Source of the DNA: an uncultured Schlesneria sp.
GTDB taxonomy: Bacteria > Planctomycetota > Planctomycetia > Planctomycetales > Planctomycetaceae
Assembly (NCBI GenBank): GCA_903904835.1
Contig: CAIVEI010000060.1
Coordinates: forward strand, 1 to 64,000
Reading direction: 5' to 3'
Length of the DNA: 64,000 bases
Shown here: one piece after another, positions 12,248 to 17,258 of the stretch
How the letters are laid out: each line of letters starts with the position of its first letter
Position numbering within the stretch: position 1 is the stretch's first letter
Notes under the pieces: model-generated
The model's database searches: none
Seen by the model: the letters and a program-made list of their open reading frames with translations, nothing else
What the model was told of the DNA's origin: nothing
Made by a program: the position numbers and the translations under genes

Positions 12248-13660
12248 TTACTGACTTTTGGTATCGTCCAATTCGCCGGTCCGATGCTTCCGGCGCTTGA
12301 GCGCACTGATTTCATCGACTGAGAGAAATCCCCATCGAAGCGACTCGTCCTGAATATATTGCTTGCCGAGAGTCAGCGCCGTTCTCGCCTTGTTCAATTC
12401 CATCCCAAGATAGAACGCGTGTTCGGCAGTTAACGAGCCAACCGAGGCGTTCATCTGATCGAAGACTTCATAGGGGTCGGAACCGTGCCAGTAGCCGTCC
12501 CGGTTCATGAGATGGATCTGCCCACCTTCGGCGAAAACGCGAAAGTTAGGATCGGTCAATCGGCTGGCAAGTTGTCTCAATCCGTCCTCGCCGATGGTAC
12601 GAAGCTTGGGATCACGAAGCATGACAAGCTGACCCCCGAGATGTTTTGGAAGAACTCGATTTTCGATGCTATGCCGAACGAGACGACGAGCCAGATCAAA
12701 TTCGCGAATTGCCGTACGCCCCCAATTGATCACTTCCGTCGCTAGCACACTTCCGATCCTGAGTTCTTCGCATATTGCCGCCAGTAAGAAGTTGATCCCC
12801 GCACTGTCGACTTCGGTCAATTCCGTCAAATTACCGATCCCCATCATCATCGTGGCGGAGGGATAGCGGCGCCTCGTTTCATAATACCGCTGAAGAGACG
12901 CAGCAAAACCAAAACCGATTGGCTCGAGCACGGGATCAAGCCGAAAGGTTCGATGAGATTCCCGAAGTCGGCTGCAAGTTGCGTCCCAAGAGCCAATATC
13001 TCGTACCTCATCAGGTATCACCACGAACTCGACAGGAAGTCCGCACGCCCAGCCCACGTTCGAACCATTACAACTCAGAACCAGTTCAGCACCAGCCTCA
13101 ACTGCCGCTTCAACTTCCGACTGCTCAAAACTGTCGACGGAAACTCGAAAACCTTCCGATCGCAATTGTTTGACGGCCTGAGCAATCCCGGTCCACGACT
13201 CTCCAGGAATACAACCGAGATCGATCACATCCGCGCCCGATTGACGGTATGTATTCGCAATGCGCAAAAGTTCTTCGGCAGACAGTCGTGGCGCGTGGTT
13301 AATCTCGGCAAGGATTTCGATGGAATGGTCCACGAGCAACGGTGGAGGCCGCCCCCCACGACCAAAGAATTCCGGGAGATCAAACAAATCTTTTGGTCCA
13401 AGAGTGAACGGAACCCCAAATTGAGCGGACAATAACGAAAGATCGCCACCACACCAGCCAGGAAGAATGATTCGAGTGACACCCTCTGGAACCACAAGCT
13501 TCCGCTTCACCCAGTCAACATGCATTAATGCCGCGACCGAGATCCCCAGAACCGAGATCTCATATTCAAAGCCGACTCGTTCAGCTAACGGTCGCAAAAC
13601 TTCTTTGAGCGACGGTTCTGCCAGGCGACCTGTCACAAAAAGTATTCGTTCGCGCGACAT
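12248..13660 (-). CDS. Dihydropteroate synthase-related protein (DUF6513-like N-terminus)
   Basis: MSRERILFVTGRLAEPSLKEVL...; central DHPS-like TIM barrel segment (GADVIDLGCIPGE, VSVDSFE, GIGNLTELTEVDSAG); ATG at 13660. Confidence 0.8.
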   Translation of the reverse strand: MSRERILFVTGRLAEPSLKEVLRPLAERVGFEYEISVLGISVAALMHVDWVKRKLVVPEGVTRIILPGWCGGDLSLLSAQFGVPFTLGPKDLFDLPEFFGRGGRPPPLLVDHSIEILAEINHAPRLSAEELLRIANTYRQSGADVIDLGCIPGESWTGIAQAVKQLRSEGFRVSVDSFEQSEVEAAVEAGAELVLSCNGSNVGWACGLPVEFVVIPDEVRDIGSWDATCSRLRESHRTFRLDPVLEPIGFGFAASLQRYYETRRRYPSATMMMGIGNLTELTEVDSAGINFLLAAICEELRIGSVLATEVINWGRTAIREFDLARRLVRHSIENRVLPKHLGGQLVMLRDPKLRTIGEDGLRQLASRLTDPNFRVFAEGGQIHLMNRDGYWHGSDPYEVFDQMNASVGSLTAEHAFYLGMELNKARTALTLGKQYIQDESLRWGFLSVDEISALKRRKHRTGELDDTKSQ

Positions 13661-13722
13661 GGTGGAGACTACTGACCAGGGCAGTGACCAACCCAATCGA
13701 TGGTCGCTGGCCCCTGGTTTGA

Positions 13723-14652
13723 TTATTGAATGATGTTCTCTGAACCAGGTTCGTCGACCCGTGGAGTCTGTCCGCCTCGAAGAACACTGTTCCCCTTGAA
13801 GAGCGTTCTCTGATCGATTGGAATCGGATTCAACCAGTCCGACTCTTGAAATTGCCCGCTTTGAGCATACGCCGTCAACGCATTTTTGTAACAGGCCAGT
13901 TCAATTTGTTCGAGCGGAATACCTCGCTCTTCGGCCAGCTTCGCAGTCTTCGGAACGGCAAGTACGTCTGACTTTCCCCAGTCGGCTGAACTGTCGACGA
14001 TCACCCGGTCAGCCCCGGCAACTTTCAAAATATCGACCATCCGCGCGTTACCCATCTTGGTACCGGGATAGATTGTGAAGCCACACCAGTAACCGCGATC
14101 CAGAACTTCGCGATAAGTCTCTTCGTTATTGTGATCGATGATGACCATATGAGGAGCAATTCCATGCTCTTCAATGACATCCATCGTACGATACGTCCCC
14201 TGCTTTTTATTACGATGAGGGGTATGGATCAGAACCGGAAGTGCGACCTCTTTAGCCAGTTCAAGCTGCAACCGCAAAAACTTTTCCTCGGTCGCAGTCT
14301 GGTCGTCATAACCAATCTCTCCGATCGCCACAACCCCTTCTTTGGTCGCGAACAAGGGAAGCAGATCCATCACCTGTTCGGCCAGAGGTTCATTATTCGC
14401 TTCCTTGGAATTGAGACCAATCGTGCAGTAATGCCGAATTCCGAATTGAGCCGCCCGAAATCGTTCGAATCCCACAAGGCTCGAAAAGTAATCCTTGAAC
14501 GAACCAACTTCCGTTCGCGGCTGCCCCTGCCAGAACGCAGGTTCGATGATCGCCCTGACACCTGCCGCTGCCATCGACTCGTAGTCGTCGGTCGTTCGAG
14601 ACACCATATGAATGTGAGGGTCAATGTAGATTGCCACAGTTTTAAGATTCAC
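13723..14652 (-). CDS. TatD-like metal-dependent hydrolase
   Basis: IDPHIHMVSRTTDDYESMAAAGVRAIIEPAFW...VVAIGEIGYDD...LPVLIHTPHRNK...VIIDHNNE. Confidence 0.85.
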   Translation of the reverse strand: MNLKTVAIYIDPHIHMVSRTTDDYESMAAAGVRAIIEPAFWQGQPRTEVGSFKDYFSSLVGFERFRAAQFGIRHYCTIGLNSKEANNEPLAEQVMDLLPLFATKEGVVAIGEIGYDDQTATEEKFLRLQLELAKEVALPVLIHTPHRNKKQGTYRTMDVIEEHGIAPHMVIIDHNNEETYREVLDRGYWCGFTIYPGTKMGNARMVDILKVAGADRVIVDSSADWGKSDVLAVPKTAKLAEERGIPLEQIELACYKNALTAYAQSGQFQESDWLNPIPIDQRTLFKGNSVLRGGQTPRVDEPGSENIIQ

Positions 14653-14668
14653 TTTCTAGCTTACGATT

Positions 14669-15400
14669 TCAGATCACTGAGGCTTGAGTTACACTTTCAG
14701 CCGGCTCCGAGAGGAAGCGAAATCCGTGGAGTCCAAGCTTTGCAAATGTCCAGACCTCATTGGCGCTGAATTTCTTCGTTTGGCCATTGACGTCCCAGAC
14801 CAGCGTCATTCTTCCAATCTTATCACGCTCAAGACGCGCTCCCTCCGGGGCGGCAACGATCCAATCAAATCCAGTTTGTGCGGGGTATTCGACGGTTTGC
14901 CCGTCGCTTTCGAGTTTGACCGAATGTACGTTGTGTGGTTCCCACGACAGCAAGCCGACGCCAGGTGCTCCAGGGAACGACATTCCATAGATGGTGACAG
15001 GGTTCCCCTTCATTGATCCGTATAGATAAACCTCGTCGGCCTGAATACCACCAAAGTAAGGGATCTGGTCTCCCGTTAGCATCTTGCCTGAAAACCGCTG
15101 TTGATTCGCGAGTAACGCAAGCGCAACGGGGTGATTCACACCAATCAGCTTGATTTCGGAACTAGTAACCCATGCAACCCATTCGGCTTGGATTGATCGC
15201 AAGACCCGATTTACTCGTCCATAAGCTGCCAGAGCACCCTCTTCGTCAACAGCGGGTGCGACAATATACAGCGACCATCGGTCTTTCTCGGCAGGCTTCA
15301 CCCAGCAGGCAGCGCGGACCTCAAACCCCGCATCGCCAAGTCGGCCAAGCAGTCGCATTCCGTCTTCAATTTTATCTTCTACCAATATGACTGAATCCAT
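14669..15400 (-). CDS. Uncharacterised protein overlapping and downstream of a HEPN gene
   Basis: MDSVILVEDKIEDGMRLLGRLGDAGFEVRAACWVKPAEKDRWSLYIVAPAVDEEGALAAYGRVNRVL...; its 5' end overlaps the HEPN ORF by 22 bp. Confidence 0.75.
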   Translation of the reverse strand: MDSVILVEDKIEDGMRLLGRLGDAGFEVRAACWVKPAEKDRWSLYIVAPAVDEEGALAAYGRVNRVLRSIQAEWVAWVTSSEIKLIGVNHPVALALLANQQRFSGKMLTGDQIPYFGGIQADEVYLYGSMKGNPVTIYGMSFPGAPGVGLLSWEPHNVHSVKLESDGQTVEYPAQTGFDWIVAAPEGARLERDKIGRMTLVWDVNGQTKKFSANEVWTFAKLGLHGFRFLSEPAESVTQASVI

Positions 15401-15807
15401 CGGAACACCCCGTCTGGGTTATGACTGACCGCTTCGTACAATTGTTTGGCTTCAGCCTCCGACTTTTGTTCATAACGAGATGACTCTTTCCAATCTTTCG
15501 TCACTCCCCAAAAGTCCGAAAGTGTCAAATTCGCTCCGCAAGACTTGCCAAAAGCTGCTTCCAACCCTGCCAAAATCATGAGTTCTTCGAGGTCATGAGT
15601 CCAGCATTTAGCGAGTTTCTTCAGATATTCTTTGTCTCCGAATATTGCTGCCGACTCGCCCAAGTGTCGAAGAAGACACGCTTTGAGGGAGCATTCGATG
15701 ACATAACCACAAAGGTAAAAGGCACCGGTCCATCTCGCTTTTTCTAAAAGAACTTCGGCATCAACGAGTCTTGCTAATGCCAGTTCTTGAAGCTGAGTTC
15801 TGTCCAC
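15379..15807 (-). CDS. HEPN-domain protein
   Basis: LALARLVDAEVLLEKARWTGAFYLCGYVIECSLKACLLRHL...THDLEELMILAGL...WKESSRYE: HEPN family pattern. Confidence 0.82.
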   Translation of the reverse strand: MDRTQLQELALARLVDAEVLLEKARWTGAFYLCGYVIECSLKACLLRHLGESAAIFGDKEYLKKLAKCWTHDLEELMILAGLEAAFGKSCGANLTLSDFWGVTKDWKESSRYEQKSEAEAKQLYEAVSHNPDGVFRWIQSYW

Positions 15808-15953
15808 GACATTACTTTCCGCACCCGGGTTAAGTCGTCAGGCTAATAATCTGATCTAAAGAAATTGTGGTTTCGCTTGCCTCACAGTGAATAATAGCCC
15901 GCGAACAATGACGAAAAAAGGATCTCTAAATCAGCCACTGAAACCGAATGAAT

Positions 15954-17162
15954 CTATTTCACCACAGAAAACTTGTGGACCGTCTTCTGGTGATAGGTCT
16001 CGCCTGGATTCAATCGTGTTGTGGGGAACTCAGGACGATTTGGTGAATCCGGAAAATGCTGAGTCTCCAGGCAGAAAGCTCCGTGCTTGACCGCGTTGCC
16101 GGTTTCCGGAGTCCCGGCAAGATGATTACCCGTGTAAAGCTGAACGCCAGGCTCTGTTGTTGAGATCTCCATCACGCGACCTGACTTCGGTTCGACAATC
16201 TTCGCCGTCGGGCGAAGCTGACCCGGCTTGCCGTTTACCACGTAACAGTGATCGTAACCACCGCCACCATTCACCGGTTGATCAATTCGTGCACCGATGG
16301 CAACGGGCTTCGTAAAGTCCATGCACGTTCCGGCAACAGCGGCGAGCTCACCAGTCGGAATCGAACCTTCATCAACAGGAAGATACTTGTCACAGAATAG
16401 CGTCAATTCATGATCCACAACGGTCCCATTGGCCGCTCCTGCAAGGTTCCAATAGGCATGGTTTGTCAGGTTCAGCACCGTCGGCTTTTTGTCGACGGTG
16501 GCTTCATAGTCGAGCGTCAGTTCGTTGTTGTCGTTCAGCGAATACGTCACAACGGTTTTGAGAGATCCTGGAAATCCTTCTTCGCCATCGGGACTTGTGT
16601 ACGTCAGCTTAACTCCGGCAACCTTATCATCTGAGAATGGTTCGGCCTTCCAGAGTTTCTTCATGAAGTGCTCTTTGCCCCCATGCAGATGATTTTCACC
16701 GTTGTTGACAGCTAACTCGTACCTCTCGCCATCGATCGAAAACTTCCCTTTGGCGATACGATTGGCGTATCGACCACAGATCCCACCAAAATAGGGACCG
16801 TTGATCAGGTACGCCGCCGGGTTATCGAAGTGCAGCGTCACGTTGGCGAACTTACCTTCACGATCGGGTACTTCCACCGAAGTAATAATTCCACCTCGGT
16901 TGATCAGACCGACTTTCATTCCGTTTCGGTTACGCAAGCTGAACGATGTGATTTCATTGCCATCTTCGGTCTGACCGAACGGTTCGCTTTGAACGGTGAG
17001 CATTGGTTCTTCCGCAGAGTTAGTTTCGTGAGCCTTGGTTGGATTGCTGGCGTGAGCACTAGGTGCTGCTGGTTTCGTCACTTTTCCCTCACACCCGATT
17101 ACTGTCAGCCAGCCGCTGAGCAACAACCCTGTCGCCAGCCGTCGAAACGGAGTTTTTATCAT
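15954..17162 (-). CDS. Galactose mutarotase (aldose 1-epimerase), predicted lipoprotein
   Basis: GLINRGGIITSVEVPDREGK...NRIAKGKFSIDGERYELAVNNGENHLHGG...LTNHAYWNLAG; N-terminal MIKTPFRRLATGLLLSGWLTVIGC with a lipobox-like Cys. Confidence 0.93.
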   Translation of the reverse strand: MIKTPFRRLATGLLLSGWLTVIGCEGKVTKPAAPSAHASNPTKAHETNSAEEPMLTVQSEPFGQTEDGNEITSFSLRNRNGMKVGLINRGGIITSVEVPDREGKFANVTLHFDNPAAYLINGPYFGGICGRYANRIAKGKFSIDGERYELAVNNGENHLHGGKEHFMKKLWKAEPFSDDKVAGVKLTYTSPDGEEGFPGSLKTVVTYSLNDNNELTLDYEATVDKKPTVLNLTNHAYWNLAGAANGTVVDHELTLFCDKYLPVDEGSIPTGELAAVAGTCMDFTKPVAIGARIDQPVNGGGGYDHCYVVNGKPGQLRPTAKIVEPKSGRVMEISTTEPGVQLYTGNHLAGTPETGNAVKHGAFCLETQHFPDSPNRPEFPTTRLNPGETYHQKTVHKFSVVK

Positions 17163-17258
17163 CGTGCATGATCCTGATGGTTCGTGAAGTGGAGAAACTC
17201 GTTGAACCGTTATCTTGGGTTCCACCCGGCAGGGATGCAAGTCTCCGACAGGGAACAA

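What the first reader, a model, noticed from the sequence alone, without database searches (positions are those of the whole stretch)
14669..15807. HEPN protein overlapping an uncharacterised partner: candidate toxin-antitoxin-like or RNA-targeting pair
The HEPN ORF (15379..15807) overlaps the next gene (14669..15400) by 22 bp, implying translational coupling. HEPN domains are commonly RNase effectors paired with an antidote, often MNT; this partner does not resemble MNT by eye. I find no clear RX4-6H motif, so the HEPN protein may be non-catalytic or use a different active site (THDLEEL and SSRYE are the conserved-looking segments).
Basis: partly seen in the sequence, partly recalled or inferred. 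Interest (0 to 1): 0.6.

Follow-up and report, generated by a model that had tools for sequence, protein, structure and literature searches.

The report
Two-gene HEPN toxin–antitoxin-like module
Two small overlapping genes, a probable RNA-cutting HEPN protein and an unnamed partner that probably holds it in check, travel together as a mobile unit through planctomycetes, Deinococcus and proteobacterial plasmids and prophages, always joined by the same 22-base overlap, and look like an undescribed toxin–antitoxin or anti-phage pair.

Summary
A HEPN gene (15379..15807, minus strand, PF05168 just above cut-off) overlaps its downstream neighbour (14669..15400) by exactly 22 bp.

The pair is not a local accident. 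It recurs in other planctomycetes, on Deinococcus and Acinetobacter plasmids, in a Klebsiella phage, in 190 of 5,426 E. coli genomes (lambdoid prophages where read), and in every related viral contig examined. The overlap is 22 bp in all 54 distinct junctions (35 HEPN clusters below 60% identity). A Gly codon restricted to GGA/GGG places a Shine-Dalgarno-like sequence before the partner start.

Here the pair sits between two genes that are only 165-171 bp apart in the three closest relatives, so it was probably acquired.

HEPN lacks Rx4-6H but keeps invariant E38-x3-K42, H71 and R111, the residues of a published alternative HEPN-T/AbiV active site. The partner matches no Pfam, NCBIfam or PADLOC model; its N-domain (pLDDT 92) weakly resembles MNT antitoxins but lacks MNT motifs. 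HEPN is broken with the partner intact at seven loci, the reverse at none.

Best reading: HEPN RNase toxin plus non-enzymatic antitoxin-like partner, probably anti-phage. Toxicity, binding and RNase activity are untested.

The parts
15379..15807 (-). HEPN gene, GTG start, 142 aa; predicted RNase toxin/effector
   Evidence: PF05168 22.7 bits; PADLOC PDC-M28A E 4e-9; PHROG 5737 E 3e-24
14669..15400 (-). Partner gene, ATG start, 243 aa; predicted antitoxin/regulator
   Evidence: No Pfam/NCBIfam/PADLOC hit; recurrent partner of HEPN
15379..15400 (-). 22-bp coding overlap ATGG...TTGGTAG: HEPN W137..W142-stop read in one frame, partner M1..L6-V7 in the other
   Evidence: Same length in 54 of 54 distinct junctions
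15408..15411 (-). GGGG, Shine-Dalgarno-like sequence in the HEPN Gly133-Val134 codons at -11 to -8 of the partner start
   Evidence: Gly133 is GGA or GGG in 54/54 junctions and 35/35 cluster representatives, against 57% elsewhere in the same genes
15815..15820 (-). GGAAAG, probable ribosome-binding site of HEPN
   Evidence: Sequence read directly
15682..15696 (-). E38-x3-K42 motif (helix-2 Ex3[KR] of HEPN domains)
   Evidence: Invariant in 21 homologues; motif described in PMC3710099
15595..15597 (-). His71 (THDL), candidate alternative catalytic histidine
   Evidence: Invariant; PMC3710099 describes such a histidine between helix 2 and 3
15475..15477 (-). Arg111 (SRYE), the R of the degenerate Rx4-6H motif
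   Evidence: Invariant in A1 and A4
15023..15400 (-). Partner N-domain, residues 1-126, a-b-b-a-b-a-b; the part shared by all homologues
   Evidence: AlphaFold2 pLDDT 92.0, pTM 0.86 with 40 sequences
14672..15007 (-). Partner C-terminal extension, about residues 132-243, lineage-specific, no known domain
   Evidence: Poorly modelled; in 8 of 249 genomes of the class, always as part of this partner where the locus was read
14653..15953 (.). Segment holding the pair between a TatD-type hydrolase (13723-14652) and an aldose-epimerase-like gene (15954-17258)
   Evidence: The two flanking genes (94-99% identical) are only 165-171 bp apart in three relatives

Best explanation
A mobile two-gene toxin-antitoxin-like module. 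HEPN is a small RNase of the HEPN-T/AbiV kind that uses an alternative active site (E38/K42, H71, R111). The partner is a non-enzymatic protein whose conserved N-domain binds and restrains HEPN; its variable C-terminus may sense the trigger or add an effector. The partner start lies inside the HEPN gene behind an embedded Shine-Dalgarno-like sequence, so ribosomes finishing the toxin also make the antidote. When a phage or stress upsets the complex, HEPN would cut RNA and stop growth. Shown: pairing, fixed overlap, embedded SD codon bias, active-site residue conservation, mobility, purifying selection, asymmetric decay. Inferred: RNase activity, direct binding, neutralisation, phage trigger.
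For: Pairing and 22-bp overlap across phyla, plasmids and prophages. HEPN codon 133 restricted to GGA/GGG (54/54; 35/35 clusters, naive P 2.7e-9). Catalytic-type residues invariant and matching a published alternative HEPN site. HEPN broken but partner intact at seven loci: G082:C174, G040:C65, G002:C223, G094:C336, G075:C82, G431:C1 and one E. coli genome; the reverse at none of 24 planctomycete loci. Probable acquired insertion between conserved genes. Both genes under purifying selection in enterobacterial copies (median dN/dS 0.085 and 0.089) and distances correlated (Mantel r 0.45, 0/5000). Neighbour of BrnTA on an Acinetobacter plasmid.
Against: No experiment. Rx4-6H is absent, so HEPN could be non-catalytic. 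No structure of this HEPN was modelled here. Some frameshifts may be draft assembly errors, and the loci are not all independent. The PADLOC match is only to the HEPN component of a candidate system. Neighbours in the window are housekeeping, not defence, genes.
Confidence: 0.6

Rival explanations
1. A two-subunit anti-phage complex in which both proteins are needed for activity (partner as sensor or target-recognition subunit), without a classical toxin-antidote relation.
For: Partner C-termini vary by lineage, including a DUF3800 fusion in Deinococcus and a 110-aa extension here; common in prophages; HEPN matches a phage-defence candidate model.
Against: The partner alone persists after loss of HEPN at seven loci, odd for a co-dependent subunit; many partners are only about 125-135 aa with no added domain.
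Confidence: 0.22
2. HEPN is a non-catalytic RNA-binding or regulatory subunit, as proposed for some HEPN proteins without Rx4-6H, and the pair is regulatory.
For: No Rx4-6H; the PF05168 match is marginal.
Against: Invariant charged residues E38, K42, H71, R111 over a median 39% identity suggest a retained active site; mobile, patchy distribution.
Confidence: 0.1
3. A true HEPN/MNT (type VII) pair with a diverged but active nucleotidyltransferase antitoxin.
For: Best PDB matches of the partner N-domain are MNT antitoxin chains, E 0.005-0.012; 7AE2 chain B is named as MNT in PMC11586414.
Against: No GSx10DxD; only V7, W33, L6, G14, W42 and Y60 are conserved, none catalytic-looking; profile comparison with 18 MNTs gives nothing (probability 0.1%); TM-score about 0.37; BolA-type folds also match.
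Confidence: 0.05

Closest known systems
HEPN/MNT type VII toxin-antitoxin (HepT/MntA)
   Same: Two adjacent small genes, HEPN plus an alpha/beta partner; weak fold resemblance of the partner to MNT
   Different: Partner lacks GSx10DxD and any MNT sequence similarity; HEPN lacks the Rx4HxY active-site motif
HEPN-T (PF05168, AF0298-like) and AbiV with alternative conserved His (PMC3710099)
   Same: Ex3K, conserved R with the motif H missing, extra invariant His N-terminal to it
   Different: Co-encoded with this partner here; no partner of this kind was found in the passages of that paper consulted
PADLOC candidate system PDC-M28
   Same: HEPN component matches PDC-M28A (E 4e-9 to 2e-6 in five members)
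   Different: Partner matches no PADLOC model convincingly
PHROG 5737 / 5760 (phage families of unknown function)
   Same: The E. coli and Klebsiella pair belongs to these two families; the window HEPN also matches 5737
   Different: No function assigned; the window partner does not match 5760 on its own
Tha, a HEPN anti-phage system of S. aureus prophages (PMC11087260)
   Same: Prophage-borne HEPN defence protein
   Different: Known to me here only from its abstract; not compared by sequence

Membership tests
HEPN-T (PF05168) | Profile match above gathering score | tested here: met
   22.7 against 22 bits, marginal; E. coli member 27.8 bits
HEPN-T (PF05168) | Canonical Rx4-6H motif (reported lost in part of this family) | tested here: not met
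   R111 is invariant but no conserved H follows at 4-6 residues; PMC3710099 notes the H is replaced in several HEPN-T
HEPN-T alternative-site subgroup (AF0298/AbiV-like) | Conserved R, Ex3[KR], and a second conserved H N-terminal to the motif | tested here: met
   E38-x3-K42, H71 and R111 invariant in 21 sequences; criterion. Position of H71 in 3D not modelled
HEPN-T | RNase activity | not testable with these tools
   Needs protein
HEPN/MNT type VII TA | Partner with GSx10DxD nucleotidyltransferase motif | tested here: not met
   No conserved G, S or D of this motif in 40 partners; invariant in 18 MNTs of the same class
HEPN/MNT type VII TA | Partner homologous to MNT by profile | tested here: not met
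   hhalign probability 0.1%
HEPN/MNT type VII TA | Partner has MNT fold | tested here: inconclusive
   Top PDB hits are MNT chains, E 5e-3, but TM 0.37 and BolA folds match too
Type II/VII toxin-antitoxin module | Conserved, mobile two-gene unit of small proteins | tested here: met
Type II/VII toxin-antitoxin module | One protein toxic, the other neutralises it | not testable with these tools
   Only indirect: asymmetric decay
PDC-M28 | First component PDC-M28A | tested here: met
   E 4e-9
PDC-M28 | Second component | tested here: not met
   No PADLOC model matched by the window partner or by five other partners, except one at E 0.048 to PDC-M02B

The most novel reading that the evidence does not exclude
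A widespread, undescribed toxin-antitoxin/anti-phage family in which a HEPN RNase with an alternative active site is restrained by a pseudo-nucleotidyltransferase, an MNT that lost its catalytic motifs and inhibits by binding alone, with the antidote start codon and Shine-Dalgarno sequence frozen inside the toxin gene across phyla and with lineage-specific sensor or effector tails on the antidote.
Probability: 0.25. Interest if true: 0.7.

Novelty: new variant of a known kind. Interest (0 to 1): 0.52.

Why it matters
It would add an antitoxin family to the large HEPN world and give a likely role to two phage protein families of unknown function (PHROG 5737/5760) carried by about 3.5% of complete E. 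coli genomes. It offers a testable case of an HEPN toxin without Rx4-6H, and of a toxin/antitoxin overlap whose dual coding (W..W-stop with M..LV) and embedded ribosome-binding codon are preserved while the proteins diverge to a median 39% (HEPN) and 26% (partner) identity.

Tried and rejected
Partner as MNT by sequence: rejected. Partner as BolA family: no PF01722 match in 40 partners; structural matches weak; profile comparison with the BolA-like partners of other HEPNs gave only a 29-column alignment at 2.8% probability. Partner profile against PDB sequences: nothing credible. HEPN profile against PDB sequences: nothing at E<=1. Foldseek against predicted viral structures: one short unnamed protein, E 0.013, probability 0.98, TM 0.42/0.57, not informative. 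C-terminal extension as a separate mobile domain: not found outside this partner nor in viral contigs. Local or artefactual overlap: rejected by 54 junctions. Papers naming the E. coli accessions or the PHROG numbers: none held. A paper on E. coli prophage defence arsenals (doi 10.1016/j.chom.2025.04.021) is not held, so prior testing of the E. coli pair cannot be excluded. DefensePredictor (PMC13092281) reports four HEPN systems; whether this pair is one of them could not be settled from the passages read.

Full report
Observation. The window lies in a planctomycete-type genome (G000, contig 60; a close homologue is from a named Planctomycetota MAG). Both ORFs are as described, on the minus strand, HEPN first. 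HEPN starts GTG at 15807 behind GGAAAG; the partner starts ATG at 15400, giving 22 bp of overlap with the end of HEPN. HEPN passes PF05168 narrowly. The partner matches nothing in Pfam, NCBIfam or PADLOC, and its N-domain homologues match no family consistently.

Recurrence. In 99 related genomes HEPN relatives were found in 23 and partner relatives in 16, and the partner hits are next to a HEPN or its remnant. Wider: a Deinococcus plasmid, an Acinetobacter plasmid next to BrnTA, a Klebsiella phage, 190 of 5,426 E. coli genomes, in the contexts read within lambdoid prophages between the replication P gene and ninE, and viral contigs. The distribution is patchy: only 14 of 343 genomes in a phylum-wide sample had any match to the HEPN profile at E<=1e-8.

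The overlap. It is 22 bp in every intact case: 24/24 planctomycete loci, 37/37 loci of the scripted set (many near-identical), 54/54 distinct junctions overall (the pattern search required this geometry, so searches are the unbiased counts). The shared string is N-TGG-N12-TGG-stop, so HEPN W137, W142 and stop share bases with partner M1, L6 and V7; the invariance of V7 and W142 is therefore partly a by-product of the overlap. HEPN codon 133, an invariant glycine at -11 to -9 of the partner start, is GGA or GGG in 54/54 junctions and in 35/35 cluster representatives, while 43% of other Gly codons in the same genes are GGC or GGT (naive P 2.7e-9; relatedness makes the true value weaker). This gives GGAG, GGGG or GGAA at Shine-Dalgarno distance. 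I read this as selection for partner translation from inside the HEPN gene.

Mobility. In the three closest relatives the aldose-epimerase-like and TatD-type genes that flank the pair (94-99% identical) are 165-171 bp apart without it; here they are 1,304 bp apart, and the intergenic sequence is replaced up to the first codons of the TatD gene. Two of these relatives carry a copy elsewhere (G001:C289, G005:C44) and the third a lone partner (G002:C223).

HEPN active site. Rx4-6H is absent. Across 21 sequences including distant HEPNs with other partners, E38, K42, H71, R111 and Y112 are invariant. Anantharaman et al. 2013 (PMC3710099) describe HEPN-T proteins (AF0298-like) and AbiV that lost the motif histidine but keep R and have a conserved His between helices 2 and 3, proposed as an alternative active site; the order E-x3-K, H, R here fits. 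This is sequence-level evidence; I did not model HEPN.

Partner fold. The N-domain (131 aa, 40 sequences) is modelled confidently: pLDDT 92.0, pTM 0.86, a-b-b-a-b-a-b. Foldseek's best PDB matches are chains of HEPN-MNT complexes (7ae9, 7ae2; E 0.005-0.012, probability 0.85-0.89, TM 0.37), then ribosomal and BolA-type folds; a full-length model gave a similar order. That 7AE2 chain B is MNT is stated in PMC11586414; for the 7ae9 chains I infer it, since HEPN is all-helical. But GSx10DxD is absent, only hydrophobic or aromatic positions and one Gly are conserved, and profile-profile comparison with 18 MNTs finds nothing. So it is not filed as MNT; a degenerate, non-enzymatic MNT remains possible.

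C-terminal tails. The window partner has about 110 extra residues, found in 8 of 249 genomes of the class, as part of this partner. In Deinococcus the tail is a DUF3800 domain (21.8 against 21 bits). Most other partners have no tail.

Which is the toxin? At six planctomycete loci HEPN is frameshifted, truncated or deleted while the partner ORF is intact, and one E. coli copy has a truncated HEPN with an intact partner. No locus was seen with intact HEPN and broken partner. Six against none has a two-sided binomial P of about 0.03 under equal risk; drafts may hold errors. This is what loss of a toxin ahead of its antidote would give.

Constraint. In the enterobacterial copies median dN/dS is 0.085 (HEPN) and 0.089 (partner), and distance matrices of the two proteins correlate (Mantel r 0.45, 0/5000), as expected for co-inherited functional genes.

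Verdict. A real, mobile, conserved two-gene HEPN module with a partner family that I found described nowhere in the held library, most likely toxin-antitoxin-like and phage-related. It is a new variant of a known kind; mechanism steps beyond sequence are inferred.

Noticed in passing
L019 1465-2217, L022 1342-2200, L023 1150-1886, L024 1468-2246, L031 1282-2188: More distant HEPN relatives are followed by a different small protein (about 105-117 aa); one has a sub-threshold BolA match (PF01722 E 0.004, cut-off not reached). A second kind of HEPN pair with a BolA-like partner is possible.
   Followed up: partly
L054 4992-6760 (Deinococcus plasmid): Partner N-domain fused to a DUF3800 domain, directly after a HEPN with the same 22-bp overlap.
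   Followed up: partly
window 14600-14660: The TatD-type gene has an altered start relative to its relatives (ATG-TTC/TTT-TAC there, GTG...GCAATCTAC here): the acquired segment reaches its first codons.
   Followed up: partly
L191 2667-3462 (E. coli Z1814): HEPN reduced to a 180-bp ORF while the partner is intact.
   Followed up: yes
genomes of the class: Classical minimal nucleotidyltransferases occur in 36 of 199 genomes of the class but not in G000.
   Followed up: no
window 12248-13696: Dihydropteroate-synthase-like protein (DUF6513, PterinBD-DUF4346, TIGR00284 below cut-off) next to the TatD-type gene; function unclear.
   Followed up: no
L053 4014-4928 (Acinetobacter plasmid): DUF6236 gene directly upstream of the pair and next to BrnT/BrnA.
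   Followed up: no
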